In this document: one piece after another, positions 3,036 to 64,000 of the stretch
Layout of the letters: each line of letters starts with the position of its first letter
How positions within the stretch are numbered: position 1 is the stretch's first letter
Assembly: GCA_001692895.1 (NCBI GenBank)
Contig: KV748189.1
Coordinates: forward strand, 1,930,432-1,994,431
DNA from: Cenococcum geophilum 1.58
Taxonomy: Eukaryota; Ascomycota; Dothideomycetes; Gloniales; Gloniaceae
Direction: 5' to 3'
DNA: 64,000 nt
The notes under the pieces: generated by a model
What the model was told of the DNA's origin: nothing
The model's database searches: none
Seen by the model: only the letters and a program-made list of their open reading frames with translations
Program-made: the position numbers and the translations under genes

Positions 3036-4586
3036 ATGACTGATCCGACAAATATTAGTGACAGTAAGCAGCCCGAAGAGGCCCACTCAACCAATATACT
3101 TGAAGAGGCTCCAGCCGGTGTGCTGGAAGAGGGCAGCTTAGATCCAGTCTATGAAGCTAAAGCCAGAGTCTTGAACAAAGCTATCCAGGATATTGGAATG
3201 GGCCGTTATCAATGGCAACTTTTCATCGTCATTGGATTTGGTTGGGCCAGCGACAATCTCTGGCCTATCGTTACCTCCTTGATATTTACTCCAATCACCA
3301 ATGAGTTTCATCCAACCCGACCTCCTGTCTTAACGTTGGCTCAAAATATTGGACTGCTCGTCGGTGCTGTATTTTGGGGCTTTGGCTGCGACGTCTTTGG
3401 TCGACGATGGGCGTTCAATCTCACTATTGGTGTCACGGCTGTCTTTGGTTTGATAGCTGCAGGGTCGCCAAATTTCGCAGCAATTGGAGTGTTTGCAGCA
3501 TTATGGTCCGTTGGCGTTGGCGGAAACCTTCCAGTTGACTCTGCCATATTTTTAGAATTCCTTCCAGGATCCCACCAATATCTCCTAACAATCCTTTCGG
3601 TCGATTGGGCATTGGCCCAGGTGCTCGCAACTCTAATTGCCTGGCCACTCCTAGGCAATCTAACTTGCCAAGAGGATGTTGTTTGTACAAAGTCCAAAAA
3701 CATGGGCTGGAGATACTTCATGATATGCATGGGCGGTATCGCTATGATCATGTTCTTTCTGCGCTTCGTTTGTTTCACAATCTTTGAATCGCCAAAATAT
3801 TTCATGGGTAAGGGAAAAGACGCCGAAGCTGTCCGAACTGTCCACGAGGTTGCACGAAGAAACGGAACAACATCGACCCTCACCGTCGAGGATCTGGAAG
3901 CTTTTAACGTGGGAGGAACGCAAGGCACGGAAGCGTCTGCTGCACTGCAGCGGAGGTTGGAAAAGCTGAACTTCACACACGTAAAAGCACTCTTTGCAAC
4001 TAAGAGGTTAGCTTTCTCGACAACTCTCATCACGTTCGTATGGGCTTTCATTGGACTTGGATTTCCCTTATACAATGCCTTCTTGCCCTACATCCAGGCC
4101 ACTCGCGGCGCAAAATTTGGTGATGGCTCTACGTACATTACTTACCGGAATTCCCTCATCATCGCCACCCTCGGAGTCCCTGGCTGCCTTCTTGGAGGCT
4201 TCCTCGTGGAACTGCCTCGCTTTGGAAGAAAGGGAGCTCTATCGCTCTCGACAGTCTTGACAGGAGTATTCTTATTCGCCTCCACCACGGCTGTCACTTC
4301 AGACGCGCTCCTCGGCTGGAATTGCGCCTACAACTTCGTGGCCAACATCATGTATGCCGTCCTCTATGCATATACCCCAGAGATCTTCCCGACCAAGGAT
4401 CGCGGCACCGGCAATGGCATCACGGCATCTGCTAATCGGATTTTCGGGATCATGGCCCCAATCATTGCGATGTTTGCGAATCTTCAGACGGCTGCGCCGG
4501 TGTACGTTAGCGGTGCGCTATTTATTGCTGCCGGACTTCTTGTAATAATTCTGCCTTTCGAGCCGAGAGGAAAGGCTAGTTTGTAG
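3036..4586 (+). CDS. MFS transporter, SVOP-like
   Basis: A single uninterrupted exon encodes 516 residues from the Met at 3036. A further 48 in-frame codons upstream begin at 2892, but they are polar and Met-3036 (context ACAATATGA) starts the usual acidic, soluble N-tail of this family. About twelve hydrophobic segments follow from residue 62. Visible MFS marks are motif A (GFGCDVFGRR, residues 115-124) between TM2 and TM3, the FLEFLPGSH segment near 172-180, and FESPKY at 250-255 before a roughly 100-residue central cytoplasmic loop (KGKDAEAV). The C-terminus ends PFEPRGKASL, typical of fungal members. Proteins of this type sit in membranes and move small organic solutes by secondary transport; the substrate cannot be read from sequence. 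There is no intron and no sign of RIP. Neighbours share no pathway. Confidence 0.93.
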   Translation: MTDPTNISDSKQPEEAHSTNILEEAPAGVLEEGSLDPVYEAKARVLNKAIQDIGMGRYQWQLFIVIGFGWASDNLWPIVTSLIFTPITNEFHPTRPPVLTLAQNIGLLVGAVFWGFGCDVFGRRWAFNLTIGVTAVFGLIAAGSPNFAAIGVFAALWSVGVGGNLPVDSAIFLEFLPGSHQYLLTILSVDWALAQVLATLIAWPLLGNLTCQEDVVCTKSKNMGWRYFMICMGGIAMIMFFLRFVCFTIFESPKYFMGKGKDAEAVRTVHEVARRNGTTSTLTVEDLEAFNVGGTQGTEASAALQRRLEKLNFTHVKALFATKRLAFSTTLITFVWAFIGLGFPLYNAFLPYIQATRGAKFGDGSTYITYRNSLIIATLGVPGCLLGGFLVELPRFGRKGALSLSTVLTGVFLFASTTAVTSDALLGWNCAYNFVANIMYAVLYAYTPEIFPTKDRGTGNGITASANRIFGIMAPIIAMFANLQTAAPVYVSGALFIAAGLLVIILPFEPRGKASL

Positions 4587-5064
4587 TCAGTGGAGGAGAA
4601 GCTTTGATGGATGATCGGCCTTACACATTTTTCCTTAATTTGAGATACTGGTGCGGTCATGCTACCACGTAAGGCTGTACAGCTCGACATTAAAACAAAC
4701 GAGTTTTTTTCTAAGTGGATATAATTTCGCTGGTCTTCCATTCGTAAGGCATAGAGCACAATCATATGTCCACCTAGCTGGTGAAATTCGATTACGTTCA
4801 AATCGGGTAAGAAAATAGAATATAGAAAAACCCTTATATGAATACTTTTATTCCAAAATTAGAGAAAGCAGTTATTGTCACAAATTTCGTGAAGCAGTGG
4901 AAAGTTGAAAGTTTGAAGCTGGGGAATACCGGTTTTGGTGGTTGCTCAGCAACATCGGCTTGGCGCTTTGTTGACAAACCCCCCAGGCTCATCCACTAAA
5001 GCCTGCCGAAAGTTGGTACACCATTGCTTGTCCATACAAATTTAATACCATATCAAAAAACAAA
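4587..5064. other. intergenic, between MFS and kinesin genes
   Basis: A 478-base tandem-gene spacer holds the 3' end of the transporter transcript and the kinesin upstream region. No convincing gene is seen. The kinesin start has a good fungal context (AACAAAATGG). No clear TATA box was identified. Confidence 0.5.
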
Positions 5065-11793: not shown

Positions 11794-14667
11794 CTATCTC
11801 CCTTCTTTTTATCTTTATCTTTAAAGATCCTAAATATCTTTAAGATGTTTATTAGAGGTATAATATCCGTCTAATTAATTTAGTTAATATTATTACCTAT
11901 TATACCTAAAACTCCTTCCTCTTTATAGGCGTAACATTGTACTCGCACTATTACTATAATATTATCTCTTAGTGAGATTATACTATCTCTATATTCTTGC
12001 TGTTTAAAAGAGGGGTTAGTTTATATTATATTAGTAAGTCTATCTTCGCAATAACCGTTCTTTTACTTAGAGTGCACTAAAGCAAATATTTGTTTATCTT
12101 ATAACGTTTGTTTTATCTCTAATACTAAATATACGTAACCTATTACTCTTAATAGTTATCTAGTTCCTTAACTAATTTGTTTTAGGGTCTTTTATTTAAT
12201 CTACTACTATGCGGCTAGATAGTAAACTATTTTAAGCCCTTACTAAGTTAGAATGTTCCCGTAATATAGAGCAGAAGGCTTTTAAAGCCCGTATTACGGC
12301 GTCTACTTAGTTACTTCGTCTTAAGAAGGTTTATAAGAAGGTCTATTTTAAAAAGTAGAAACTTATAAAATAAGATTTATAGAAACTTAGTAATAAAAGA
12401 ATAGATTCTCTTTTAACTAAGAAGGAAATAGATTTAAGTAGTTTGGCAACTACTCTTCTTCTTAGGTCCCCTTTAGGTAACTTATTTTTTGGCAATCTTT
12501 TCTTATTAATACTGCCTAACCTAATTTCTTCTGATACTCCTATACCTTTCTTATAGCGTTTTTTTAAATTTTCTAATAGCTTCTAGGTAGTCTTATTATA
12601 GCCTATCTACTTAACCTTATACTATGTTTTATTATTAATATCCTTATAACTAACAATCTTTAAAACTTGCTATTTATCTTCTTCTTATCCTTTATACGTA
12701 TCTACTTTATAAACTAGTAGTTTAAAGTTTCTATATACTAGTTCTAGTATCGCAATATGCTATATAGGGTAGATCTTTATTTTAGCTAGTAGGTTTAACT
12801 TAAACGTAACTAGTGAAATTNTNTANNTAATTNTAAAAGGTCCTAGTNTNACGTNGTNNAANTTCTTACTTANTCNTTAACTCTTNAAANTTTTGTATAG
12901 TAGCCATACTTTATCTCCCTCCTTAAGATCTGGTCCCTTAGATCTCTTAGCATTATAGTACTTTTTTATTCTTTCTTATACTTTCTTAGCTAATTCTATA
13001 AGGTCTATATAAAGATTTATTAATATCTTTATTCTTTCTTTAGCTGTGCTACTCGTTTTCTTTACTTACTATAGTAATAATAATGTTCTTGGCTTATATC
13101 CATAATTTGCCTTAAATAGTAATATGCCTATTTCTTCTTATGGTGTTATATTGTATATAAACTATATAACTAGTAATAGCGATACCTAATTATTCTATGC
13201 GTAATTAATATAATGCCTTAGATACTATTCTAGCGTTTAATTTAATCTTTTTATTTAACCGTCTGTCTATAGATAATATGCGGTAAAAGTTACTGCTTAA
13301 ACTCCTTACTCCGCTAAGAATACCTTCTAGAATACTGCTATAAATCTTAAATCTCTATCTAATATAATCTTACTTAGTGCTCTATATCTTATAAATACTT
13401 CTTTAATATAGATTCTAGCGATATCCTTTACTGAGATTTCTTCTGTGCATACTATAAAGTAGCCCTACTTAGTTAACTTGTCTACTATTACTAAGATTAC
13501 ATTATAATCTTATCCGGTAATAGGATCTCTTAACTTTAGTAACTTAATAATAAAGTTCTATAATATAACCTCCTATACTCTCTCTAGTATTTTAATAGGT
13601 TATAGCCCTTTATATAGCTTATATCTTATTAGTTTATTTCTTTAGCAATTTAGATACTCTTTTATTACTTTCCTTATAATATTCTAGATTCTATTAATAA
13701 TATATTCTTCCTAAAGTCTTATTACTAAGCCTATTGCTCTATTATGTCCTTAAGTTATTCCCTTATAGAAATCCTCTATAAAATGCTCTACTATACTTTT
13801 TAGGATGTACTTCGCTTCTCTGTACTTATACAGTATTTCTTTTTCTAGATATTTTAACTGTTCCTTTAGCTATACTTTAAAGATTCTTTATACCTAAAAG
13901 CTTTCTAGTGTCTTATAAACTCTTCCTAGTTTATTATCCTCTTAAGTTGCTGCTAGTTTGGGGTAATTATACCTAATTAATCTATCCTTATCTTGGCGTA
14001 GTATTGCTCCTAATAGCTTCTTATTATTCTATAGTTTAGCTTTTCTGCTAAGTGCGTCTGCTCTTATATTCTTAGTTCCTTTAGTATACTAAATTTTAAA
14101 ATAGTATTCTATAAGCATCTCTGCCTATCTAACTTATCTTTAATTAAGTTCTTTTATTGTTAGGAACCCTATTAGGTTCTTATAATCCGTCTTAACTATA
14201 AATAGTTTTTCTGCGCCTTATAAGAATGCTCTCTATTCTTTAAGTACTATAACTATCCCTAATAACTCCTTGTTATAGACGTTATAGTTTAACTCTAGTA
14301 GTGTTATCTTTTTACTATAGTATATTACTAGGTGCTATATATCCTTATACCTCTATAGTAAGTATACTCCTAGTATATAGTCCAATATATCCGTTTCTAT
14401 AACCATATCTAGCCCTAGTTAATAGATTTTAAGAATTAGCTCCTAGGTAAATAATTCCTTAAGTTCCTTAAACAGCTTCTTTTATTTATTTTCCTATGCC
14501 TATAGTTTCTCTTTCTTCGTAAGCCTAGTAAATGGTTTAATGTTCTTTAACTATTATGCTTTAAACCTTCTGTAGTAGTTGTAAAACCCTAAGAATAACC
14601 TTAACTGCGTTATATTCTCTAGTTCTTACCAACTTACTATAGCTTTAATCTTCTTTAGGTCTATACT

Positions 14668-45270: not shown

Positions 45271-47828
45271 TCTAGATATAACTATAATAGGATTCCCACT
45301 ATAACCCTATTAGAGGTATCCGTTTTTAATATTAATTTAAGGTCTAGGTTATAGTAATAAAGAATTAGGGAAGAGATAAGCCGATTTTTTATTTCTTTAA
45401 AGGCTTCTATTTAGCTATTATTAAAGATTAAAAGCATGCCCTTCCTAGTTAGTTATATAAGAGGTTTTACTATAATTCTATAATCGCGGATAAACTAGCG
45501 GTAGAAGTTATAAAAACTAAAGAAGGATTAGATTCCTTTTATTATATAAAAAGACTTCTAGTTATAGATTACCTTTACCTTTTTAGGGTTAACCTTAATT
45601 CCTTCTATAGTTATAATAAACCTAAGGTATTTTATACGTTTTACCCTAAACTTATATTTCTTAATATTAACTTATAAGCCCGCGTTCTGTAGTCTCTCTA
45701 AGACCTTTTTAATATAAACTTAATACTTAAGTTTGTCGTCTAAATATATAAGAATATCGTCTAGGTATACTATATAGAACTTATTAAGGTAATTAAAAAG
45801 AATGTTATTTATATACTTTTAGTATATAGCTAGTCCGTTTATTAGTCTAAAAGGAAAAACTTTATATTTATAGGACCTATAATAGGTACAGAATATTATT
45901 AAATCTTTAAATATAGGGTCTATCCTAATTTAGTAAAAAGCTTGGCGGATATTAAGTTTAGTAAAAATCTTTACCTAGCTTAGATATATAAGGGTCTTAT
46001 TNATTAAAGGAATAGGGTACTAGTCCTTTTAAGTAATAGTATTTAGCTTTTAATAGTTAATATAAAAATAAAGACCTTTATTAGGCTTTTTTATAAATAG
46101 AATAGGGGAAGTAAAAGGGGCTTAACTTGGCTTAATAAACCCTTTATCTAGGTTATTAATTAAGTACTACTTTATTACTTTTAGCTTATCTATTAATTAT
46201 TAGTAGAGGGGGCTATAGCCTAGTAAGTTATTAGCTTCTAATTAAATCTTATAATTATATATCTAGTAAAGGGGTAACTTATCTAAGGCTACTTTTAAGA
46301 ATACATCCTTATAATCTATATAAATAGTAAGGAAAAAGTATTTAACTAGTTCCTTATTAGTTTCCTTAACTGGCCTTTTCTCCCTATTATTAATAATTTA
46401 GTTAATTTTATATAGGCTTATTGTAAAGACCTTATTATCCTTCTAATATATATTAAAGTGGAACGCTATAGCGCTAATTACGGCGATATCTACTATAGGG
46501 GGGTTATATAATAATAGGGGTGTATATAACCTTAAGGGCTTCTAGGGTACTAACGTTATTATTACTCCTTTTAGCTCCTATTATATCTTTTAGAGGTTAT
46601 CCCTTATATCTTATTAATATATTCTTTTCTATACTGGTTAAATCTACGCAATTTAGATATTATCTATATTACTATCTATCCCGCTTCTATATATAGAGTC
46701 CTCTTTAGATATAGCGCTTTAGAAGAGTATCTTTATCAGTATAGAGTTTTTTCTAGCTTTATAGCGGGCGTCTTTTTAGGTAAAGGCTAGGTTATAGGCC
46801 CGGACATCCTACTAGTAGGTAGGGTTAGCCTTTACGGCTAGTGTCTTATAATTAGTTTAGATTTCCCTAATAAATAAGGGTAGTTTCGGTCTATCCTCTA
46901 GCTAAATAAATTATCTTTATTATATATTTAGCCAAATATTAAAATAGGATATCTATTTTTAGCTAAGGATTATATTATAAGACCTTTGGTCTAGGATATA
47001 AAAAGGGATACTATATTAGCGTTGTCCGTTAAGAGTAATATATAACTTTAAGATATGGGTAACTAGCTAACTGGCTTAGCCGTTATAGCCTTTTACTTAA
47101 ATAGGCTTCTCTAATTGGGTAGCTTCTATATTTAGAAATTTAGCTATATTATTTATATAGGCAGTATTTATAAAGGCGAAGCTATTTACTCTAGTGTTAA
47201 TAAGGGCNNTTATATTNACNNTATATNNATTTTANNATACTATATATANAANNNTNAAATNCTTTNNACCTATTAACTAACTAAGATTAATCTCTTTAAG
47301 ATTAATAGGGTACCCTAGGGGGGAGTCTTTCTTTAGCGCTTTTCTTTTCCCAACTTATTAGACGTTTCTCCTTCCTCTATCTCCTTAATATCGCCTATAT
47401 CCTTTAGCTCTAGGTAAAATAAGGTAAAGTAATCCTTTTTATTATAGTTATAGTAAGTGGCCGAGGTAGGGTCGATTGGGGTATTGCGATAAGTATTAAT
47501 TAGGGGTGTGGTATATAGCTAGTTAGCTAAGGCCTATTAGTGCGTAGATATAACCGCTTTTAGTATAAGAGCGGTTATAGCTTATTTTCCTACTTTAGCT
47601 CCTATAGGTATAGCTAATAAGTTTTAATTATTTTAGGGTCGCTTTTACCGATTAAGGTAGGTATTAATTTACTTTAGTTTTAAATCTAGTAATAGGTAAC
47701 GAGTTATAAGTCTATTATATATTAAAAGGTTATTTAAGGTTATAGCGATATTCTTTTATAGCCGAATTGTTAGCTTATTATATAGGTTTAATTAGTAGTT
47801 CTTAAGGGGAACCTAGCCTTCTCCTATA

Positions 47829-48752: not shown

Positions 48753-49502
48753 CTAATTAGTAAGCGCGCACAGATCAGCAATTACTTAATACCTCCCCCC
48801 GAGCGATACACGACAGCGACCACCCGTTTAGACTCCTAGTACGACCTACTAAAAGGTCAAAAGTCGGGGATTACGGACTTATCACTAACTATATATACTT
48901 ATTTAAGTCTTAGTACGGTTTACCGGAAGTATAATAGACGCGAATATAGACCTGTACGGAACCCCTACCCTTAACCTCCTTTAAACCTCAAACCCCTATT
49001 TCTACTACACCTCCCCCAATACCTCTAACCTCTCTCAGACCCCTTACGGAGACCCCTCACCCTTTTACAAACTACTACGGACCTATTAATTACCTTTACG
49101 GACCGTTACAAGACCTTATAGAGACCTCTTACCCTTCTATAAACCGTTACGGACATTAACCGCCTTTACGGACCACTACAGAACCTCTTCTACCCACTAC
49201 GTACTATACTACACTATATAGTATAGCAGACCTAAGAAAGCAAGTCAATAAAGGCCAGGAAAAGTAGAGGTAGGGAGCTAACCTTATGTCTATACCTAAC
49301 GTCAATAATTATATTAAATTTAAAGTTCTTAAATATGAATATTTTAAGCTTATAAACGTTAACCTATAGGAGCAATACTAAGAGGACTTCGCGGACTTTA
49401 CGGAAGCTATCTTTAAAGTATACAACCCTACTACTATCTATAACCTACATCGGGAAAATATTCGCAGGATGAGATTCAAGTAGACTTTGGTTTTCGCGTT
49501 TC
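48753..49502. other. internal region after the left LTR
   Basis: Leader-type sequence up to about 49,286, then a short gag-like reading from an ATG at 49,287 to about 49,460, where the minisatellite region begins. No other gene is seen. Confidence 0.45.
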
Positions 49503-49850
49503 GCGTAATTGACATGCAATTTGACCAACTCGACACGCAATTGACCAACTTGACACGCAATTGACCAACTTGACATATTCAAAAGTTAAATAACACGCAG
49601 TTAACCTAATTGACAACTTTAAAAGCTAACTACATATTCCTTGACACGCAGTTGACCTACTTAACATATTTAAAAGTTAAATAACACGCAGTTAACCTAA
49701 TTGACAACTTTAAAAGCTAACTACATATTCCTTGACACGCAGTTGACCTACTTAACATATTTAAAAGTTAAATAACACGCAGTTAACCTACTTGGCAACT
49801 TTAAAAGCTAACTATATATTCCTTGACATGCAATTAAGGTAAAGTTATAT
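49503..49850. repeat. minisatellite, 91-bp unit built on GACACGCAGTTGACC
   Basis: First come short units (GACACGCAATTGACCAACTT, about 21 bp), then a 91-bp higher-order unit repeated about three times (starts 49,573, 49,664 and 49,755). Each unit contains two forms of the ACACGCAGTT[GA]ACC core. Confidence 0.85.
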
Positions 49851-49894
49851 GCCAGTTACGCAATCTTATATAATCTTACATAGTCTTATTACTT

Positions 49895-50372
49895 AGAGGC
49901 TCTACACAAGGTTCTGCACAAGGCTCTACACGAAGCTCTACACGAAGCTCTACACGAAGCTCTACACGAAGCTCTACGTACAGAGGCTCTGCACGAGGCT
50001 CTGCGCGAAGCTCTGCGTACGGAGGCTCTGCACGAAGCTCTGCACGAGGCTCTGCACGAGGCTCTGCGCGAAGCTCTGCGTACGGAGGCTCTGCACGAAG
50101 CTCTGCACGAGGCTCTGCACGAGGCTCTGCACGGAGGCTCTGCACGAGGCTCTGCACGAGGCTCTGCACGAGGCTCCGCACGAGGCTCTGCGCGAAGCTC
50201 TGCGTACGGAAGCTCTGCACGAAGCTCTGCACGAAGCTCTGCACGAAGCTCTACGTACAGAGGCTCTGCACGAGGCTCTGCGCGAAGCTCTGCGTACGGA
50301 GGCTCTGCACGAAGCTCTGCACGAAGCTCTGCGCGAAGCTCTGCATACGGAGGCTCTACACGAAGCTCTGCA
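49895..50372. repeat. minisatellite, 12-bp unit GCTCTGCACGAG/A
   Basis: About 40 units of GCTCTGCACGA[GA] with GCGTACGGAG variants every few units. The array is open in more than one minus frame (Ala-Glu-Pro-Arg / Ala-Glu-Leu-Arg), but this follows from the unit length being divisible by three. Confidence 0.9.
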
Positions 50373-50497
50373 TCGGGGTCCCCGCTATATTCCCGATAGC
50401 CTCTACACGTGTTCTCTGCCATGTAGCCGCCTTATTTTTTACCTTCCTCCTTCCTTACATCCTCCCTACCTAGGGAGGCACTAGAACGGCAGCCAGC

Positions 50498-50770
50498 AGA
50501 GGACCGTTGCTAGAACTAGATGACTATCGCTACAACCAGACGACCGTCGCCGTCGCCAGACGACTGTCGCCAGAGACAGACGACCGTCGCTAGAGCCAGA
50601 CGACCGTCGCCAGAACCAGGACGATCGTCGCCAGAACCAGACGACTGTTACCAGAACCAGACGACCGTCGCCAGAGACAGACGACCGTCGCTAGAACCAG
50701 ACGACCGTTACCAGAACCAGACGACCGTCGCCAGAGCCAGACAACCGTCGTCAGAACCAGACGACAACGA
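50498..50770. repeat. minisatellite, 20-bp unit AGACGACCGTCGCCAGAACC
   Basis: About 13 units with the GACGACCGTCG core, which is partly self-complementary (CGAC..GTCG). Just before it, CCTCCCTACCTAGGGAGG at 50,461-50,478 is a small near-palindrome. Confidence 0.9.
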
Positions 50771-50792
50771 CTAGCCAGCGAACACTATAAAC

Positions 50793-50814
50793 GATTCGAT
50801 CGATCGATCGAATC
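50793..50814. repeat. 22-bp perfect palindrome
   Basis: GATTC, then GATCGATCGATC, then GAATC reads the same on both strands. It sits exactly between the 20-bp and 18-bp arrays. Confidence 0.9.
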
Positions 50815-50815
50815 A

Positions 50816-51265
50816 AGGTAGCACAGACAGGTAGGGCACAAACAGGGGGATGCTGACGGGTAGGCAGATGCAGACAGGTAAGCAGATACAGACAGGTAAG
50901 CAGATGCAGACAGGTAAGCAGATGCAGACAGGCAAGCAGATGCAGACAGGTAGGCAGATGCTGACGGGTAGGCAGATACAAACAGGTAGCAGATGTAGAT
51001 AGGTAAGTAGATGCAGACAGGTAAGCAGATGCAGACAGGCAAGCAGATACAGACAGGTAGGCAGATGCTGACGGGTAGGCAGATATAGATAGGTAGGCAG
51101 ATACAAACAGGTAGGTGATGCAGACGGTAGGCAATGCAGACAGGTAGGCAATGCAGGCAGGTAGGTAGGTAGGTAGGTAGGCGATGCAGACGGTAGGCAA
51201 TGCAGATAGGTAGGCAATGCAGGCAGGTAGGTAGATAGGTAGGTAGGTAAGTCAATAGGTAGATA
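50816..51265. repeat. minisatellite, 18-bp unit GCAGATGCAGACAGGTAA
   Basis: About 20 units of GCAGAT[GA]CAGACAGGTA[AG], ending in GGTA tetranucleotide runs near 51,155-51,180 and 51,225-51,265. All three minus frames are open across most of it because the unit lacks stops; I do not call genes here. Confidence 0.9.
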
Positions 51266-51624
51266 GGTAGAAGAGAACCATCGCTATATTATATTAAATT
51301 ATCTAAAATATTATTATTTATTTTACTAGCCTTATAAATAGCTTTAAAGTAGCTTTTATTTATTTAAAATATGCTATTAGTATAAAAGAGGTAAATATAA
51401 CTGTGGTTGCCAAATGCGCAGATTGCTGGCAGGTTGCGCGCAGGCTGCGTGTCAAAAAAACAGTGCGTACAGGTCGGTCGGACCACGCTAAAATGTCGGC
51501 CCGATAGGCGAAACCTCCGCCTACCACACCAAATTTGACTTTCCCTGTTAAACTTTGACCTTACCTTCCACCTCACCTTCCATCACTAATTTATTAAATC
51601 CATTCAAAACCGATTTAAAATACG

Positions 51625-52759
51625 ATGTCTAGCATATTAAAGAGCTGTGTAAGCTATCTGTAACCCGTTCTAAATGTATTCTAATAGTTTAGGCCGCCTA
51701 TAAAGCCTATCTAAAAATGGAAAGGCTTCCTAAGGGCGTTAATGCTTTTGTTGTGGTAAGTAGTTCTAAATATATTTAGAACACGTTGCTAATGTGATAC
51801 TAGCGTGGTAATGAGGTGGATTTAACTATGGGGGAGGTTTTCTGTTGGTATAATGTCTCGCCTGATCTAGAGAATCCGGTACTATGTGGTGTAAGTGGAT
51901 AAATATATTGGGTTTGTAATATATTGCTAATATATTTGTAACGCGTTTAGAAGAAGGTTAGAGATTATGGCGCCTTTAGAAACTATATAAAGAAGCATAG
52001 CCTTAGAACCAGGAATATTGGAAAAGGAGGGGCTCCTTCTATTAAGAAGTAGGAAGAAGCAATAGGTATATATTCTAAATATATTCTTAACCTATTTATA
52101 ACTAGTTACTAACCTATTACAGCCTTCTATTCTGCTATTATGGCTATATATAATTAGAACGTGTTAGGAACTGCTTCTAAATATAATCCTACTAGTCTAG
52201 GCCGCTCTGCTGCTACCTAACCCCTCTATACCCCCACCCCGGCTCCCCCTAGCCGCCCTTTTAGGACTATTGCCCCACAATTAACGGCTCCTATTTAAGA
52301 GAAGGTTATGCCTATTAGATTTAAGAGTGGGCCTTAAAAAGGCGATATAAGATATTCCTAATATATTTATAATATGTTCTAATTAAGTTCCTAGTATAAC
52401 TTTCCAAGAATGGTTACTCTGCTTAAGGAATTGGGTGCTAAGGTTCCATGTACTAAGTGTTTAGACACGACTTCTATAGGTAAGTTAATTTAGAACCCGT
52501 TTTAAACCGGTTAAGAATATGTTCTAAATTTATTATAGCCTGCTTATTTAAGGGTTGTCTTAATTGGAGCTACTTTATTAATAATAGGTTAGATAATACT
52601 AAGGCTCCTACTGCTCCGGCTTCTGCTGCTCTGGCTCCTACTAAAACTTCTAAAAAGCGTTTAAAGAAGTCTAGTTTAAAAGGTTTAAAGGCTGTAAAGA
52701 GAAATGCTACTAAACCTACTAGACTTACGGAGGAGGATGTTGCGGCGGATTTGTTTTAA
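51625..52759 (+). pseudogene. unrecognised multi-exon gene A of the MULE-like transposon
   Basis: Exons 51625-51648, 51693-51755, 51804-51890, 51951-52065, 52123-52346, 52395-52479 and 52539-52759 join in one frame to 272 codons. A further in-frame 48-nt array (52,148-52,195) is probably also an intron, giving 256. The reading begins MSSILKSC. It then has LTMGEVFCWYN, a basic segment KKVRDYGAFRNYIKKH, a Pro-rich linker, a possible zinc-binding VPCTKC..ACLFKGC cluster, a Lys-rich KKRLKKSSLKG region and the end EEDVAADLF. Four or five in-frame stops are all TAA/TAG at likely Gln codons. Two donors read AT instead of GT. I do not recognise the protein. DNA or RNA binding is a guess from Cys and Lys content. 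Confidence 0.72.
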
Positions 52760-55700
52760 TAGATGACCTAGAATCTAATTTATAACGTGTTTATAATATG
52801 TTACGAATTAAATCTTATAGATAGAGTTTAGACTTGAATTTTAATAGGGTTCTATACCACTTCGGAACGTGTTTATAACACATTAGGTAGCGAAAATAAA
52901 AGTTATTAGTTAAATTATAATATTTATTGAAATTTACTAACTTTAGCTCTTTCTAATAACTCCCTTTATATACTTTATAATTCTAATAATTTAATTATAA
53001 ACTAATTATTATTTAAATTTTAATAAAATAAGAGTTTTAATTTTTAAAAATAGTATAAATATATAGTAAAAAAAGCCTATTAAATTAAATTATTTTATAA
53101 TAAATATAATTTTAAATAAAAATTATATATTTAATAAAAATTTAAAGTATATTTACTTTAAGCTATTATAATAGTATTTTTTTAAGTATTTATTTAAATA
53201 TAAAAAATTATTAAACCTTTAAATAATATATATATATATAAATAAAATATAAAATTAGTTAATATAAAACTTATTTTATTTAATATATTTTTAATTAAGT
53301 ATTAGCTAATAGTTTTTATAAGTAACTATATTTATATATATAGATAAGGCTTAAATATATAGATAGTAAGTAGTAAAATAATACATTTTTTTTAAATAGA
53401 ATAAAGATAAGTGTTTAGATTTCTTATAGCCTTTTCTCCTATTTTTTACTATTTAATAGTTATTAGTACCTTAGTATTTTATTAAGTAACTATAAACCCC
53501 TAATTAAAAGATTTATAAATTATTAAAATATAATTACTAATATATATTAAGCTGCTTAAAAAGGATTTATATATATAGAACTATAGTGCTATAGTCTAGA
53601 GACTGTATATATAGTATTATATATAGTATTAGACGTTATATAATAAAATAATTATTAAAAAAGGCCTAAATGTAAGTATATCTTAATAGGAACTTAATAA
53701 GAATATATTTAGAACATATTTAGAACGTATTTAGAACGTATTTTATATTTAGTATACTCGTTATTATATATAAGCCTTTATTGCCTCTAATTAAATTCTT
53801 TTTTCTATATTCTCTAGCTCCCTTGCCTCTAATTTAATCTCTATTTTATAAAGTTTAAGTCTTTAACGTCTTTCTTGAATATCCTGGTTATTGCTTAAGG
53901 CCTGACGCTTTAGTGACTGCGAGAGACCGGTGCTAATACGTCTAGAACGTGTTAGTAACTGGTTACGTATACGTTAGAATATAAAGGTGGCCTTACAATT
54001 CCTTAGATACTATAGAGGATAACCTAGAACGCGATATAGATCTAGATCTTAGCCCCCTTAAATGCTAAGCAGAACTAAATTATAACCTTACTATACCTAA
54101 TAATGATGCCTGAAATAAAATATTATTCTTGTTATCATTAGTAGCGGCCTACTCTAATTCTTCTTAAAGTTGTTAATGTTTTTGTTTTAAACGTGTTAGG
54201 AACCGGTTTAGAAGAGGATTGCAATAAATATATACTCTCTCTGCCCATATGGTTTGCATATTGGGCCGATATTAATGTGTTTCTTTGCATATGTTATATT
54301 CCGAACTGGTTTCTAGTAAAATACTAATTAACGTCTTGTTAATCTAGTTTTTATGCGCTAAATATAATATAAGTATGTTATAAACGGGTTAGGAACGTAT
54401 TAATACCTTATAACGGTAGGAAGAAGAAACTGCCGTATACTAAATGTATATGATTTATTTGCTGTTTGTTTTACTGCATTTGTATAGTATCTTAATCTAT
54501 TAAATAGCTTGTGATTAATTAGAGAGTAGTGCTTATTTAAGCCTAAGGCGATAACTGGGTGTCTCTTATGTCTCACCCAGTTAGCAACTGATTGAGATTT
54601 GTGTGCTATGCTGTTAATACCTTCTAAACGAATTATAAACGGGTTTAGAATAACTTACTAATTAGTAAATTATAGAGTTCTTTGTATTCTGACTGGCTCT
54701 TATATATAAGAAGAGCTTTTATCTGTTTATATATAGAGTAGGCCGTTTTATAGTTACCCGCGGCTCTTGAGATGCTTTATAGGAAGTGTACTTAGTAGAA
54801 AACTAGTGTTTTTCTAAGATGCCACGTCTAATCGCGCCTGTGAGGATTAATATGCTATAGATACCGCCTAAACCCTTTTATAATACGTTAGGAAGGCGTT
54901 TTAATTGCGTTCTAGGTATCCTACTAGCTATTTGCTTGCCATCTATATTGGATGTAATAGCTTTAAAGCCTTCCTTACTACTATAAATGTGTTTCTAACG
55001 AATCTGCTTCTAAAGACATTTAGAAAGTAATTGAAAGACTTGCTTAAAGCATAACTGGTAAGTACGCCTTGTTTCTATGTTAGTAATAACGTGTGTAAGC
55101 GTAAATACTGTTAGAATATATTAGCATCGCGTTCTAAATGGGTTTATATTATATTCTAATACTTTTACTATACTTTTTAAGCTAAACAGCGAATATAATC
55201 TTGTTTATATTTCTTTTAATAATACGTTTAAAAGATATATTAACTTTAAATGTGTTTTGGGCTAGGAAGATCTTGGCTTACTTTTATAGAAAGCAGATTA
55301 TTATAAACCCGTTTTAATTATTGTAGATCTGTTGGATATAAGCCTATAATGTGTTAGTAAGCCAATTAGAACGTATTTGTAACGTGTTTATTACCGTTTT
55401 AGGATTTTGATGCTTTTAATTAAACTTATATACTACCCCTACTAGTTCTTTTCCTTCTGGGTATAGAGTAAGCTTCTCTTTTTAAATTATTCTAGTAATA
55501 TAATCTATAGTAGCAAAGCTTACGTGGATCTGTGCTAAAGAAGCCTTTTTATACTGTATATAAAACTGTTTAAGGGCAGGACTTTAAAGAAACTTTCCTA
55601 TAAAGATGTTAGGTATTTGTTTGTAATCGGTTTAGAATATATTTACTAAGAGTAAGATCTGGATTACGTATTTAACGAACCAACTTAATTACCTTATTTA

Positions 55701-57058
55701 ATATCTCTAGAGGCGGCTTATTTAGGGGGGGTGGTGCATAACTATGTACCCTATATAAGGTAAAATGAATATAAGGAGTCTCTTCTAAGTCGTCTAGAAT
55801 AAAAATGTGAAAAGTAACCTCGCAGTCCTAATAGATAAGTTTCCCTGGTCCCTAGGGGTGGTTAATTCCTATAAACACGTTATAAATATGTTACGAACGT
55901 AACCGGAATACGTTTTAAGTAGGTTATATATTTTTTTTATTGCAGTCTACCCTTCTATATAGATTTAATTTAATAACTCTGTATTTCTCCGTTATATCGG
56001 CACCTATATTGCCTAGTTGAATAAGAGATGTTAAATACGCAGTATTATATTTCTTATTTGCTAGTAATGCTTTTTAGAAGTGCTTTAAATGTATTTCTAT
56101 AGTAGCCTATATATAGGTAAGAAATAAGTGCCGAACGTTAGTAATATCCTAATGTAATTAGTTCTAAATATATTTAGGTAAGATAATTATATATAGAGTA
56201 TCTTTGTTGCTTAATTGTTAGTATATAAGCCTCTGTTTAAGAGCTGCATGTATTTCTAGCTTAAAATCGTCTTTAAGCTGCTAAAAACAAGCTTATATAT
56301 ATTAACTTAAGTACTAAATATATTTAGAACCAGTTCCGTATCTATTTGTATTACGTTTACGAATATCTAAGTCGCTTCTATCTAGGGCCGCCCGCTCTCT
56401 CTATATTAGACCCCACGTCTCTTTAGTAACTATAGTGTGGCTTAAAAATTATAACCAATTCTAAAGATATTCGTAATGTTTTACTCCTGAATAACGCATT
56501 TTATGTTTTTTACCTCTTATATTTAAGAGAGCGGACGTTATAGGCTTAGAAGCATGCACTTATTTAGTTCCGTATTAGATCTAAACGCGTTATAAACTAG
56601 TTATAAATATAGTTAAGGCATAATTTAGATTTTTACCAACTTACCTGTATGGCTTTTTGTATATCTATGCCTCTTAAGTTAATATGGTAAGTATAACCTT
56701 TATATAGCGTCTGTGGGTACTCTAGAAGACTTAAACAATTCTCAATTACAAGTGTAGTAAGAGGATTAGTAGATGCCTTAGTAAGAAATGTAATATAAGG
56801 AACTTCGGGCTAAATATGTTTAGAACTAGATTAGAACGCGTTTAGAACGTGTTAAAAACTTACCTTAATCTGATCTTGCGGCTATGTTCGACTCTCTTCT
56901 AGCATATAATCTTCTAACCCAAGGACACTGTCTTCTGAATTAATTTTAAACTTATTTTTATTATTACTAGAGAAATCCAGTAGCTAGTAATTATCAGATA
57001 GATCTATTTAAATTAGAATATATTCCAAACACGTTACAAACACGTTATAACTAGTTAC
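51649..57058. repeat. dispersed 11-bp arrays (RTTNNNAAY-NN) making up the introns of genes A and B
   Basis: Each delimited intron of both genes splits into 11-bp units. Examples in sense orientation: 55,394-55,344 reads GTAATAAAC-AC, GTTACAAAT-AC, GTTCTAATT-GG, CTTACTAAC-AC, ATTATAG. Intron 52,066-52,122 contains ATTCTTAAC-CT, ATTTATAAC-TA, GTTACTAAC-CT, ATTACAG. Intron 56,863-56,810 contains GTTTTTAAC-AC, GTTCTAAAC-GC, GTTCTAATC-TA, GTTCTAAAC. The next-to-last unit usually supplies the CTAAC/CTAAT branch site and the last partial unit the 3' splice site. A non-intron array of four units lies at 53,701-53,745. Confidence 0.82.
52880..53690. other. very A+T-rich spacer between convergent genes A and B
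   Basis: About 800 bases of almost pure A/T with no reading frame or domain. 11-bp arrays lie at both margins (52,778-52,815, 52,850-52,880 and 53,701-53,745), just downstream of the two stop codons. Confidence 0.6.
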
Positions 57059-57062
57059 CCAT
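53764..57062 (-). pseudogene. MULE-like transposase gene B, intron-rich, lightly damaged
   Basis: Read on minus from ATG at 57,062 (four-base first exon) to TAA at 53,766-53,764. About 14 introns; those fixed to the base are 57058-57004, 56863-56810, 56644-56581, 56360-56306, 55646-55598, 55394-55344, 55162-55108 and 53972-53933. Exons give a coherent chain: MDLSDNY, YQDCEVTFHIFILDDLEE-type, LYPEGKELVGVVYKF, FKVNISFKRI, FTLTHVITNIETRRTYQ, TLVFY-x-VHF (usually C-x-VHF), WVRHKRHPVIALGLNKH, TNAVKQTANKSY, and a Glu/Arg-rich coiled-coil tail. I recognise the order from a widespread, poorly named fungal family with MULE-like C-x-x-H and Asp motifs. Roughly 20 TAG/TAA codons stand at Gln positions, and a few splice sites carry G-to-A changes. 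Confidence 0.75.
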
Positions 57063-57339
57063 GATAGTTGGTTCTGTTTTGGAGCCGAGAGGTAAGTTAT
57101 GTGGTGGGATGAGCGATTTGCGCTCGGTTGACCACGTAATCTTATATTTTCAGCTGAGGCTGCCCCGTGCAGGGATTGTGCATTAGCGCTTATGGTAGAC
57201 CCACCCTTTAGCGTGGCCTAACCGACTTATAACCACAAAAAAACACGACATAGGCTAGTCGGTCGAGTTGCTAAATGCCCTCAACTGCGCGCCAATTGCG
57301 TCAACCACCAGCCATTGAGGCCATTAGTAGGGTACCATA

Positions 57340-60300
57340 TTTTGCCGATGTACGGACCCTCTTATATAACCAAGGTGTATAGGTTAAAAGAAATAAACAA
57401 GTCACTGTTATATAGTCCTTATACAATACAATACACGAAAAGGACCAAACGGAATAGACTAAAAAGGAAATCCTAGACCAGTTCTAAGAAACCAAAGAAC
57501 TCTTTACTTCTTCTAAACTTAATGTAATCGCTAGCCTTATACCTAACCCACTTAACCAAATTCGTCCTATAAACCTAAGTAGTTTTAGAATTAACCTTAC
57601 GGGCTAGAGTATACCTAGTACTCAAGTTACGGACTATAATACCCCTGCAAACCAAAATACGGACCAAATTACCCCTATCGTTTAAGTTATAAATCTATAA
57701 GCTATATATCCGCAAACTACATATCCATAAGCTATATATCCGCAAGCTATAAATCCGCAAGTTACAGATCTGTAATTTACCTAAGTAAAGACCTATAATA
57801 AGGAGCTAGCTAACCTAGCTAAGCTCTATACTAACGAATCTAAGTATAGCGGTAAAAACGACAACTTTAACTTCAAACTAACTATCTTTACGGACCTCTG
57901 CCAGAAGGCTAATATTCCTAAATAGGAATTTAGCCAAGCCTACTCTACTATACTGCGCGGCCTAGCCCTTAACCACTACTACACCAACCTCAAAAGCAAC
58001 CCCCTTAGTGTTCCCTTTAATAAACTATGCGAAGCTATATATAACTACTTTAAAGGGCCGGAATATAGGCGTAATATCCTTACCCAATAGAATGCAATTA
58101 AGCTACAAACCGTAATTAACAAGAATCCTAAAAAGTCAACCGCAGAGTGCCTGCAAATCCTCATTAAGGACCTCCGGCATCTACAGTATAGCCTTAACAT
58201 TAAGCTTTAAATAGATAACTTTCTGCACAACAAACTTATTATAGCTTACTAGGAAGTAGAGCCCTATAAGTATACCTATTATAAGCCTACAGATACCTTA
58301 GCTGGCCTTATTAATAACCTACACTCCTCTATTATAACATATAAAGTCTTAAACCCACTAGATAGCACTTAAGCCTTTACTACGGATATTCAATATCCGC
58401 AAACAGACTTAGACGTCTACTTTACGGACTGCCGTTACCGCTAGCAGCACCCATACCAACCAAGTCCCTATAACCCCCGCAGCAACCCCTATACGAAAAT
58501 ATACCCCCGCAAACAAACTAGCCAGAAGTGCTTTGTGTATAGTAAGGAAGGATATTAGTCTATAAGGCATACTTAGGAAAAATATAACAAGTCCAGAAAG
58601 AGACTTAATAGCCGTATTAACCAGTTCATTTCGGAATATAAAGGAGAGGAAGCAGAAGAGCCCCCTAATAAGTTAATAGAAGCCCTTATAATTAACTTTA
58701 ACTTAGACGCTTAGGAATAAAAGACCTTAGAAACATTTTTAACTACTTTTAGACCTTTTACAGACAACCAAGCCTTTAATATTACAACCGTATTAGCCAA
58801 CCGTTCCTTTATACACTTAGTTACGCCTAAAAACCACTCTATAAGCACCCCTATTATAAACATTATAGATTATAAGTAGGACCTATTTACATATATCACC
58901 ACAGAACGCTATACCCCCAAGGAATTCTACGGTATTATAATTAACACAGGTACCTCTAAGAAGTCTACCGTAGGCTATAGACAATACCTTATATATAGGA
59001 CCACTACAAATAATAATACGGACATTAATATTACGTAAACTAGGGCCGTAAACGTCTAATTTGGCATCAGCTTAACCGCATTAATTAGATTAGTTAAAGT
59101 TAAGACTCTAATTAGCCTAGTTAACTTCCACGTAGTAAAAACGGACACCCCCTTCCTACTCTATCTTGCAGATATGGATAGGTTATAGGTATACTATAAC
59201 AATGTTACGGACACCCTAATTAGCCCTATAACTACCCCAGGAAGCAAGTATATTATCTTACTAATTACACAACAATTTGGACACCCGTTCCTTATATAGG
59301 GAGAGATTTTACGGACCTATATTTAGGAATCTTTTAACTATAACCCGTGCTACCTTACTAGTATAGAGATCTACCATCTATACCGCCGTTTCGGCTACCT
59401 GTTAGCCGAAAAGCTATATAGAGTCCTTAAACGCTCTAGACATAACGACGTTAATAGGAAGGCAGTTAATTACCTAACTAAATACTACTCCTTTTGCTAG
59501 AAATACAGACGTTCCCTAAGCCGATTTAAGTTCACCCTTTAGGAGGACCTTAACTTTAACTACTTAGTATACGTAGACATTATGTATATTAACGGTAGTC
59601 TAGTATTATATATAATTAACAAAGCAACCCGCTATTAAGCCGCCCGTTAGTTATAAAATATATCCACAAAATATACTTAGGATATTTTACGGACCTACTA
59701 GATTAACACATACGTTAAACCTCCGCAGTATATCACCCACGACGCCAGTAGGAACTTTATTAGCAAGGAATTCCAGCAGTATACTACGGCTATAGCTATA
59801 TTAATAAAAGCTATTCCAGTTAAGGCATATTAGTCCGTTAGGCTTATTAAGTAAGCTCACCCAGCTCTATAAAAAGCTTACTAAATTATTACGGACGAAT
59901 ATAAGGACATTTAAAAGGAACTAGCTCTATAAATAGCCGTAAAAGCTATTAATAACACCGCTGGCCCTAACGGACTAGTACCTACCCTCTTAGTTTACGG
60001 AGCCTACCTAAGAATAAGTAATCTAGGCCCTCCTACCCCGTCTATTACGGAACAAGTAGCTATAATATAGAAGGCAATAGCCGAAATAGTTAAATTACGG
60101 GCTAAACAAACTATTAATAACGCCCTATACTACCGCAACAGACCTAATATAACTTTAGTATATAACCTCCCGCTTAACTCTAAAGTCCTTATATAGCGTA
60201 AAAGCGGCAGCTAGAATGGACCCTATTGTCTACTAGCCGTAGAAAACGGGATATACTGCGTATAGCTTCCTAGTAGGCCAACTAGCTTCAGAAGCACGTC

Positions 60301-62125
60301 TATAAAACCCTACTTTTAGCCTAAAAACACCTATAACGTTAAGCCAGACGAACTAAGGGCAACCGCCGAACTAGACGAACTGGGGGCGACTACCGAATTA
60401 AATAAACTAAAAGCACCCTTACCTACCCTAGAAGTCCCCTAGAAACCTACTAAACCTATTAAACCTGCCGTAAAGCGTGGCCGAGGACGCCCCCGTAAGA
60501 ACTCCGTAACGGAAAATTACCTAACCTCCGCAGGTATATCCGCAAGGCAATCTCCGCCTATAGATATATTAGTTCTAGTATAGGAAACCCCTTTTACGGA
60601 CTTACGACGTAAAGAGATTAACGGACTACTTAAAAAGGGCGTCTTTGTAGTTGTAACGGAGAAAAACGTTCCGTAAGGCGTCCGTATATTTAACTTACGC
60701 TTTATTAACGAGATTAAGCACCCTAGTATTAATAAAGCCTTTAAAAAATTAAGACTTGTTATACAAGCTTATAACAACCAAGGAAAGGGCTTAGTCCTTA
60801 CGCAATTACCTACAATTTAACGAGTTAGTTAATAGATTATACTTATACTTACGCCTAGACTACAGCAAACCAAATCCGTAGCCCTTTACTTACGGGACAT
60901 CTCGTAAGCCTATATGCAGTCTAATACCTACCTAAGCAAAGACATCTTTATACGACTACCCCGCGAGCTTAACCTATAACTAGGAACAATTTTATAGGTT
61001 ATAAAACCTCTCTACAGAGTACCGGAAGCTAGGAACTATTAGTTTAAGACATACTACTAGCACTACGTTAGTAAGCTTAAAATAAAACAGTTAACCTATA
61101 ACCTCTGCCTCCTATATAGCCCATCAAACGGCCTTAGTATTATTAAACTTTAGATAGATAATACCCTATTCCTAGCAGACTAGACCTTTATAGACGCTAA
61201 AGAAACTAAACTATAAAAGGCTAAGTTCTTAGCAAAGCTGTAAGAGCAGTTAACTAAGTAGAATCCGATTAAGTTTAATAGAGGCCTAATTATATAAAAG
61301 GGCAACCTAATTAAGCTAACTTAGGAACACTAAGCTTAAAACCTAAAGCCTGTTATAGTAAAGCCTATGGACCTTACTAGCTCCTATAGGGAGACCTATA
61401 AGACCGTAAATACGAAGGACTAATACATTGCACAGCGTATAAGAGGCGCCTATATTGCCATAATCTATTAACCCAAATCTGCCTACAATTTGTCCTTTAC
61501 GGCCTAGGTAGTAAATCCGCAAGAAGAAAATATTAAGTAGCTTAATAAGCGCATTTAGTAGCAAATTAACAATGTAGCAAGGGGACTTACTTTCGTACCA
61601 CTAGACCTAAGTTCCCTTAGCTTACTGGCATTTACGGACGCCTCCCTTTGCCAATAATAAAGACCTATTATTATAAATCGGCTTTATAATTATACTTACG
61701 GACCGTAATTAGGACGTAAATATACTATACTAGTCCTTAATTAAATGTAAACGAGTAACTCGTAGTATACTAGCTTCCGAACTATATGTACTAGCTTATA
61801 GCTTTAATATAGCAGCCGCAATTAAATTAATAATCTAGAAGATTCTATAATTGGAGCAGTTACCCCTAGTTTTATACACTAATTTAAAGTCCCTCTACGA
61901 CTACCTAGTTAGACTAGGTACGATATAAAAAAAGAGGCTTATAGTCGACCTAATGTGCTTATATTAGGCCTATAAACGACGTAAAATTGCGGAGGTTAAA
62001 TAGATTAGCGGCGGAAACAACCTAGTAGACGCTATAACTAAGGTAAAGCCGTGTTAAGCCCTTAAAACCCTAATTAATATAAATAAGCTTAACCTAAAAG
62101 TTATAAAATAGGTAGAACGGGACTA
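57340..62125 (+). mobile_element. Copia-type LTR retrotransposon fossil, copy 2 (polyprotein region)
   Basis: A TATA-type stretch near 57,362 is followed by a plus-strand Ty1/Copia-type polyprotein: gag (about 57.75-58.7 kb), protease (58.9-59.2 kb), integrase (59.4-60.3 kb), reverse transcriptase (60.6-61.2 kb) and RNase H (61.6-62.1 kb). It differs from copy 1 in family. Broken with many RIP-type breaks. No flanking direct repeat of its own was found, so it may have lost its LTRs or belong to the 271-bp LTR element. Confidence 0.78.
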
Positions 62126-62860: not shown

Positions 62861-63404
62861 ATACCTAAAGCTCCTTCCTCTTTATAGGCGCAACGTCGTA
62901 CTCGTACTATTGCTGCAATATTATCTTTTAGTAAGATTATACCGTCTCTATATTTTTATTATTTAAGAGAGGGGTTAGTATATATTACGTTAGCGAGTTA
63001 ATTTTTATAACAACCGTTTTTTTACTTAAAGTATACTAAAGCAAATATTTATTTATTCTATAACGTTTACTCTATCTCTAATACTAAATATACACGTCCT
63101 ATTACTCTTAATAGTTATCTAATTTCTTAACTAATTTATCTTAGGGTCTTATATTTAATCTGCTACTACGTGGCTAGATAGTAAACTATCTTAAGCCCTT
63201 ATTAAGTTAGAATGTTCTTATAATATAGAATAGAGGGCCCTAGATACTTATATCGCGGCGTTTACTTAATTACTTCGTCTTAAGAAAGTTTATAAAAAGG
63301 TTTATTTTAAGGAGTAAAAACTTATAAAATAAGGTTTATAGGAACTTAGTAATAAAAAACGGATTCTCTTTTAGCTAAGAAGGAAATAGATCTAAGTAGT
63401 TTAG

Positions 63405-64000
63405 TGTCGACCTAAATTAAAGTTCCTTACTACTATTGTAATACTATTTGACGACCTAGATCGTCTATACGAACTATATCTTAGTTATCTCATATCTTAA
63501 GCTTATATGTCTTATCGAACGTCTTATTACCTCTTTCTCTTAACTATGACCTACTATATAACGACGTTGTTGTCATTGTATTTAGGACCTACCTAATATA
63601 TATAAGAGAGCTTCTAAAGCCCTCTTTAATAAAACAGAGTTCTTATTCCTAATTGTCCGTTTAATAGTTATAAGCCTAGGCTGTTTACTGTATTATCTTT
63701 AATTCCAAAGCCTTTATTCCCATTAATTTTAATTATTATCTTAATTATAGACAACTACCTACAATAACTTCTTAATAAGAAACCCCTCCCGTTATTATAT
63801 TATCCGTTATCCTTATAAGCCTAAATAATTAGGACAAATAGATTAAGGTTATTAAGTTAAAAGCGAATAATAATTGTCTCTAGAAGTATATTGACCTATT
63901 AATACCTAAGACCGATCTGCTATAGCTTAAAGAACCTATTCGTGCCTTACCTAAGGATGCTAATAGCTAGGGGAAGACGAAGCTCGCGGACCTAGATAAG
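63405..64000. other. unidentified sequence interrupting Gypsy A copy 3 at the window end
   Basis: The match to Gypsy A copy 1 (about 12,445) stops at 63,404, and TGTCGACC begins unrelated sequence. It may be the start of another LTR element, but the other end is outside the window and I recognise no domain. Confidence 0.4.

What the first reader, a model, noticed from the sequence alone, without database searches (positions are those of the whole stretch)
51649..57058. Introns built from an 11-bp repeat, in register with branch and splice sites, in both genes of one transposon
Seen directly: about 20 introns of genes A and B, on opposite strands, break into 9+2 bp units of the form RTTNNNAAY-NN. 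Phase is kept over three to five units in most of them. The CTAAC/CTAAT branch site falls in the next-to-last unit, and the final partial unit (RTTATAG, RTTTAG and similar) is the acceptor. The host kinesin introns in this window show no such period. Inference: introns grew by copying a branch-site-like unit, or introner-like elements spread within the transposon. Near-helical spacing and the palindromic GTT..AAC core could also make them phased protein-binding sites. I know of no description of this.
Basis: partly seen in the sequence, partly recalled or inferred. Interest (0 to 1): 0.92.

Follow-up and report, generated by a model that had tools for sequence, protein, structure and literature searches.

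The report
Phased palindrome arrays in transposon introns
A decayed, probably fungal jumping gene carries, mostly in its introns, rows of a short mirror-symmetric DNA word spaced exactly one helical turn apart, which look like docking sites for a protein, perhaps one of its own that resists silencing by the host.

Summary
The element holds 81 sites (18.4 expected) with 31 pairs exactly 11 bp apart; the other 111 sites in the window have none. AACN2GTT is the element's top word among 36,864 spaced words. In 14 of 18 modelled introns the array is in register with the 3' splice site. The element (51463-57236) has degenerate inverted ends, an exact 9-bp flanking repeat and two convergent intron-rich genes: Mutator-like in architecture, transposase family unconfirmed. 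Arrays also follow both apparent stop codons, and units of one intron are no more alike than units of different introns. This speaks against introner spread or recent copying and for maintained, helically phased binding sites, though some residual intron similarity remains. The closest system is VANC/VANDAL anti-silencing in Arabidopsis, where a transposon protein binds short motifs in the element's noncoding DNA. That function is inferred. No relatives were found in the prokaryotic and viral collections searched.

The parts
51454..51462 (.). left copy of the 9-bp direct repeat (AAAAAAACA), candidate target-site duplication
   Evidence: identical to 57237-57245 and flush with the inverted ends; 0 of 1241 random pairs show this
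51463..51499 (+). left terminal inverted repeat, degenerate
   Evidence: (I17, 73% over 37 nt); score alone reached by 1 of 100 shuffles and 330 of 1241 random pairs of the window
57200..57236 (-). right terminal inverted repeat, degenerate
57237..57245 (.). right copy of the 9-bp direct repeat
51625..52759 (+). gene A (about 270 codons, 6 modelled introns, basic C-terminal tail, Cys-containing stretch), decayed: 5 in-frame TAA/TAG, one donor apparently lost; true end uncertain because TAA/TAG may be decayed codons
53765..57062 (-). gene B (about 865 codons, 12 modelled introns), probable transposase, decayed: 42 in-frame TAA/TAG, no TGA; true end uncertain for the same reason
   Evidence: family not confirmed
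51649..51692 (+). A intron 1, 2 sites 11 bp apart
51756..51803 (+). A intron 2, 2 sites
51891..51950 (+). A intron 3, 4 sites (16, 11, 11)
52066..52122 (+). A intron 4, 4 sites (11, 11, 11)
52347..52394 (+). A intron 5, 2 sites; donor GT absent in this copy, boundary inferred from frame
52480..52538 (+). A intron 6, 4 sites (11, 11, 11)
52784..52884 (.). two 2-site arrays past the apparent stop of gene A
53702..53742 (.). 4-site array (11, 11, 11) past the apparent end of gene B
57004..57058 (-). B intron 1, 4 sites (10, 11, 11)
56810..56863 (-). B intron 2, 3 sites (11, 22)
56581..56644 (-). B intron 3, 2 sites
55869..55950 (-). B intron 4, 3 sites (22, 11); donor uncertain (frame does not close)
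55598..55646 (-). B intron 5, 2 sites
55344..55394 (-). B intron 6, 3 sites (11, 22)
55108..55162 (-). B intron 7, 2 sites 22 bp apart
54875..54924 (-). B intron 8, 1 strict site
54624..54658 (-). B intron 9 (35 nt, unusually short), 2 sites
54358..54406 (-). B intron 10, 2 sites
54163..54235 (-). B intron 11, 2 sites; acceptor uncertain
53942..53996 (-). B intron 12, 2 sites

Best explanation
The arrays are helically phased binding sites for a DNA-binding protein, most likely encoded by the element itself (gene A is the first candidate). The protein would read the palindrome AACNNGTT as a dimer, and neighbouring dimers would sit on one face of the helix, 11 bp apart, and bind cooperatively. 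Sites accumulate where sequence is free to change: introns, and apparently the DNA past the gene ends. In introns the fungal branch word CTAAC supplies a ready AAC half-site, so the last site of an array tends to be built on branch plus acceptor (CTAAC-NN-RTT-N-TAG), which puts the array in register with the 3' splice site. By analogy with VANC21, which binds introns and other noncoding DNA of VANDAL21 and removes silencing marks, the function is most likely to mark the whole element for anti-silencing or self-regulation. Shown here: the palindrome, the rigid spacing, confinement of the phasing to one element within this window, excess in modelled introns, register with modelled acceptors, RIP-context decay. 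Inferred: protein binding, which protein, and anti-silencing.
For: Palindromic AACN2GTT is the top word of 36,864 spaced 3+3 words in the element (27 vs 1.6). 31 site pairs lie exactly 11 bp apart, 1 at 10 and 0 at 12, a rigid phase. 46 of 81 sites lie in 988 bp of modelled intron (about 4 expected) and 8 in 245 bp past the apparent stops (1.0 expected); 2 are in exons of A, 17 in exons of B, 8 elsewhere. NN and NNN carry 0.1-0.5 bit, AA..TT 1.1-1.6 bits. Within-intron units are no more alike than between-intron units (P 0.87), so half-sites rather than whole units are kept. In the 54 sites with an 11-bp neighbour, Y=T is commoner before A (14/20 vs 6/34, P 3e-4) and R=A after T (20/30 vs 5/24, P 1e-3): the ancestral site was AACNNGTT and RIP-type decay came later. 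The published parallel: VANC21 enriched in introns, intergenic and terminal noncoding DNA of VANDAL21, 9-bp motif in tandem repeats (passages). No strict site lies in the modelled inverted ends (list), so the arrays are unlikely to be end-binding sites of a transposase.
Against: No recognised DNA-binding domain was found in either protein (Pfam only). Only one decayed copy was available, and one 71-aa exon of B found no relatives, so conservation across copies is untested. Mean intron-to-intron similarity exceeds every shuffle that keeps sites or phase columns (0 of 100, 0 of 150, 0 of 150 reach it) and 199 and 200 of 200 block shuffles, so some common descent of units is not excluded. Exons of B also hold more sites than expected (17 vs 6.3). 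Intron boundaries were set by hand with the arrays in view. The 'stops' are TAA/TAG, which elsewhere in these genes I read as decayed codons, so the arrays past them could lie in an unrecognised last intron.
Confidence: 0.5

Rival explanations
1. Neutral relic of an old 11-bp tandem repeat: an ancestral short array was copied into the introns, then diverged by drift and RIP; no function.
For: Slightly higher spacer identity between neighbours (P 0.029); mean intron similarity above shuffles.
Against: Drift would erode all 11 positions alike, but AA..TT columns keep 1.1-1.6 bits and spacers 0.1-0.5; units of one intron are no more alike than others. A true 11-bp tandem repeat found by the same pattern in a viral contig (L012) has identical or nearly identical units, spacers included.
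Confidence: 0.2
2. Introner-like elements or copying of a branch-site unit created the introns.
For: Arrays are in register with the acceptor in 14 of 18 introns; the branch word CTAAC is half of a site; mean intron similarity above shuffles and best pair reached by only 3 of 100 site-preserving shuffles.
Against: Best intron pair reached by 19 and 7 of 150 column shuffles and 113 and 131 of 200 block shuffles; arrays also in exons and past the apparent stops; hairpins, described for fungal introner-like elements (passages), are better than shuffles in 4 of 14 introns folded, all in gene A, 0 of 9 in B.
Confidence: 0.1
3. The arrays act in RNA: redundant branch or acceptor signals, or hairpins that regulate splicing of the transposase gene.
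For: Register with the 3' splice site; 4 of 5 gene A introns folded have z below -1.7.
Against: Palindrome symmetry and one-turn spacing have no evident use in single-stranded signals (inference); 9 of 9 B introns folded show no z below -1.7; sites outside introns.
Confidence: 0.08
4. Intrinsic DNA curvature or nucleosome phasing by AA/TT steps.
For: AA and TT recur every 11 bp.
Against: The spacing is exact (31 at 11, 1 at 10, 0 at 12) and C/G at the third base is specified where RIP has not acted, which AA/TT bending does not need; AA and TT here lie about half a turn apart, where bends would tend to cancel (inference).
Confidence: 0.07

Closest known systems
VANDAL21/Hiun and VANDAL6 of Arabidopsis with their VANC anti-silencing proteins (PMC5735166, PMC10398659; passages read)
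   Same: Mutator-type element (as classed in PMC6446971, passages) with transposase plus further genes; a short motif repeated in introns and other noncoding DNA of the element; exon probes used there lacked the motif.
   Different: Motif differs (YAGTATTAY or AGTTGTCC/AC vs AACNNGTT); here the site is palindromic with a rigid 11-bp phase and is partly built into branch and acceptor; VANDAL targets are described as expanding tandem repeats, here units show little sign of recent copying; the copy here shows RIP-type decay; no VANC homology shown or directly tested.
Fungal Mutator-like elements such as Mutyl (Yarrowia) and the Hop group (PMC6446971; passages read)
   Same: TSD 8-11 bp, short TIR (22 bp in Mutyl), second ORF reported with a DNA-binding role.
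   Different: Intron arrays are not described there (the word intron is not in that main text); the Mutyl paper itself was not read; DDE homology not confirmed here.
Introner-like elements and sister stwintrons of fungi (PMC8469720; passages read)
   Same: Related sequence in many introns of a fungus; symmetry.
   Different: Those are related whole introns proliferated at new gene positions; here only a short word recurs, within one transposon, and also outside modelled introns.

Membership tests
VANC-type sequence-specific anti-silencing system | short motif repeated in noncoding DNA (introns included) of the element | tested here: met
VANC-type sequence-specific anti-silencing system | element-encoded VANC protein homologue | tested here: inconclusive
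   no Pfam hit for gene A; no direct comparison with VANC was made
VANC-type sequence-specific anti-silencing system | factor binds the motif and removes methylation or silent marks | not testable with these tools
   needs gel shift, ChIP-seq, bisulfite sequencing
Mutator-like element (MULE) | target-site duplication of 8-11 bp outside terminal inverted repeats | tested here: met
   exact 9-bp repeat flush with the ends; 0 of 1241 random pairs; the repeat is A-rich, and the inverted repeat alone is not remarkable (1 of 100 shuffles; 330 of 1241 random pairs)
Mutator-like element (MULE) | MULE DDE transposase domain | tested here: inconclusive
   no Pfam hit with the read-through protein except a weak TPR match, E 0.072; resemblance to MULE transposases is recalled only
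Introner-like elements | closely related whole intron sequences | tested here: not met
   no outstanding pair against block shuffles, though mean similarity is above shuffles; spread into host genes could not be examined
Introner-like elements | stable predicted secondary structure | tested here: not met
   4 of 14 introns folded (of 18) with z below -1.7, 0 of 9 in gene B
Simple tandem repeat / minisatellite | neighbouring units alike over their whole length | tested here: not met
   (P 0.87); weak signal (P 0.029)

The most novel reading that the evidence does not exclude
A fungal DNA transposon has evolved, independently of plant VANDAL elements, a self-recognition system: an element-encoded dimer coats one-helical-turn arrays of AACNNGTT placed in nearly every intron and at the gene ends, with the splice branch site recruited as part of the binding site, so that introns serve as landing pads that shield the element from host silencing.
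Probability: 0.3. Interest if true: 0.92.

Novelty: new variant of a known kind. Interest (0 to 1): 0.76.

Why it matters
If the arrays are binding sites, introns of a transposon are doing a job at the DNA level, and splice signals and protein-binding sites share the same letters. It would give a fungal counterpart of plant anti-silencing by transposons, testable in a RIP and heterochromatin setting, and offers a simple sequence signature (AACNNGTT every 11 bp) that can be searched for in any fungal genome. It also bears on why some transposon genes are so rich in introns.

Tried and rejected
Automatic gene modelling with stop penalties gave poor models because in-frame TAA/TAG are many; replaced by hand models in which frames close with TAA/TAG read through. 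A scan of viral contigs for four units in phase gave 18 contigs, each with at least 3 pairs by construction; 17 of 18 had 3 to 6 pairs and one (L012) 10. L012 was inspected and is a simple 11-bp microsatellite; the other 17 were only counted. Search for relatives of one 71-aa exon of gene B: 7 stretches in viral and 71 in prokaryote genome contigs matched a pattern, none was confirmed; gene A was not searched there. Pfam: 5 short ORF pieces, then both proteins, nothing useful. PDB by sequence: a 231-aa part of B only, nothing. NCBIfam, PHROGs, PADLOC and Rfam were not searched.
Full report
What is there. The window is, in my judgement, part of a fungal contig (spliceosomal introns, RIP-like decay; no genome is held for it). 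Positions 51463-57236 form one element. Its ends align as degenerate inverted repeats (73% over 37 nt). That alignment alone is not remarkable: 1 of 100 shuffles and 330 of 1241 random position pairs of the window reach its score. But an exact 9-bp direct repeat, AAAAAAACA, lies flush outside both ends, and none of the 1241 random pairs showed a flush 9-bp repeat next to its best inverted match. The repeat is A-rich, which weakens it somewhat. A 9-bp duplication is in the 8-11 bp range given for Mutator-like elements (PMC6446971, passages).

Genes. Gene A runs on the + strand from 51625 and gene B on the - strand from 57062, tail to tail. Hand models give 6 and 12 introns whose frames close, except that B intron 4 does not close, B intron 11 has an uncertain acceptor, B intron 9 is only 35 nt, and A intron 5 lacks a GT donor in this copy. 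In the chosen frames B has 42 in-frame stops in 865 codons (23 TAA, 19 TAG, no TGA) against 76 and 94 in the other two frames, and A has 5 in 270 against 16 and 37. This pattern and the depleted CpA/TpG (index 0.63 in the element, 1.27 in the host genes) fit RIP. The copy is therefore probably dead. The same fact makes the gene ends uncertain, since the last TAA/TAG could themselves be decayed codons. No Pfam relative of either protein was found, nor a PDB relative of a 231-aa part of B. From memory, and not from any call, the central part of B resembles fungal transposases of the MULE type.

The repeat. In a scan of all 3+3 words with gaps 0-8, AACN2GTT is the top word of the element at 27 vs 1.6, z 20, and it is not among the six top words listed for any of the ten other segments scanned (49401-51462 and 63001-64000 were not in that scan). 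Distances between sites are 11 (31 times), 22 (12) and 33 (6); 10 occurs once and 12 never. The 111 other sites of the window have none at 11. So the unit is an 8-bp palindrome followed by three free bases.

Decay. Among the 54 sites (of 81) that have a neighbour at 11 bp, the Y is T rather than C in 14 of 20 sites where it is followed by A but in 6 of 34 others, and the R is A rather than G in 20 of 30 sites where it is preceded by T but in 5 of 24 others (Fisher P 3e-4 and 1e-3). This is the CpA and TpG context of RIP.

Where the sites are. Of 81 sites, 46 are in modelled introns (988 bp; about 4 expected), 8 past the apparent stop codons (245 bp; 1.0 expected), 2 in exons of A (1.0), 17 in exons of B (6.3) and 8 elsewhere (5.4). 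Of 31 pairs, 22 are in introns, 5 past the stops, 3 in exons of B and 1 before the ATG of A. Some exonic or outer sites may lie in introns that I did not recognise. In 14 of 18 introns the distance from the last site to the 3' splice site falls in the same three of eleven phases (P about 1e-5); the register to the donor is looser. A CTRAY word 12-17 nt from the 3' end is present in 10 of 18. The boundaries were chosen by me for frame and consensus with the arrays in view, so these tests are not blind.

Copying or selection. If units had been copied recently in tandem, neighbours would be alike at the free positions as well. Whole units within one intron are no more alike than units of different introns (5.22 vs 5.45 of 11; P 0.87; 58 units). 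The best intron-to-intron match is reached by 3 of 100 site-preserving shuffles, 19 and 7 of 150 column shuffles, and 113 and 131 of 200 block shuffles. The mean similarity stays above nearly all shuffles: reached by 0 of 100, 0 of 150, 0 of 150, 1 of 200 and 0 of 200. I read this as weak, old relatedness at most. Column information is 1.1-1.6 bits at AA..TT, 0.7 at C/G (lowered by RIP) and 0.1-0.5 in the spacers. A real 11-bp microsatellite caught by the same pattern in a viral contig has identical or nearly identical units. RNA hairpins are not general: 4 of 14 introns folded have z below -1.7, all in gene A (four of the 18 introns were not folded).

Mechanism. A palindrome repeated at exactly one helical turn is what cooperative dimers on one face of DNA would use. 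No strict site lies in the inverted ends, so ordinary end recognition by a transposase is unlikely to be their purpose. VANC21 of Arabidopsis binds a 9-bp motif in introns, intergenic and terminal noncoding DNA of VANDAL21 and removes silencing; VANC6 acts similarly with another motif (PMC5735166 and PMC10398659, passages). The distribution here resembles that. I therefore favour an element-encoded binding protein, with anti-silencing as the likeliest role.

Literature. Searches for fungal transposon introns with repeats, anti-silencing in fungi, an 11-bp period in introns, the motif itself and transposase sites in introns listed nothing whose title or abstract start describes this; two searches found no paper at all. 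In the listing AACNNGTT is in three papers on bacteria and GTTNNNAAC in one on an archaeon; none of the four was opened. Most subscription papers are outside that library.

Noticed in passing
window 57400-62000: RIP-like decayed LTR-retrotransposon-like coding stretch next to the element (CpA/TpG index 0.44, TpA/ApT 1.95); family judged by eye only.
   Followed up: no
window 49509-51270: Dense satellites (periods 12, 18, 20, 91 and others) immediately left of the element.
   Followed up: no
window 52900-53660: Central part of the element between the two genes is only 12.6% GC with CpA/TpG index 0.13; it holds a few AAYNNRTT sites but none 11 bp apart.
   Followed up: no
window 12821-12890 and 47208-47267: Scattered ambiguous bases, perhaps collapsed repeats in the assembly.
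   Followed up: no
L012, about 2880-2968 and 4580-4634: Viral contig with two simple 11-bp microsatellites of closely related units (TGATTGGAAAC and TGATTGCAAAC) 1.7 kb apart.
   Followed up: partly
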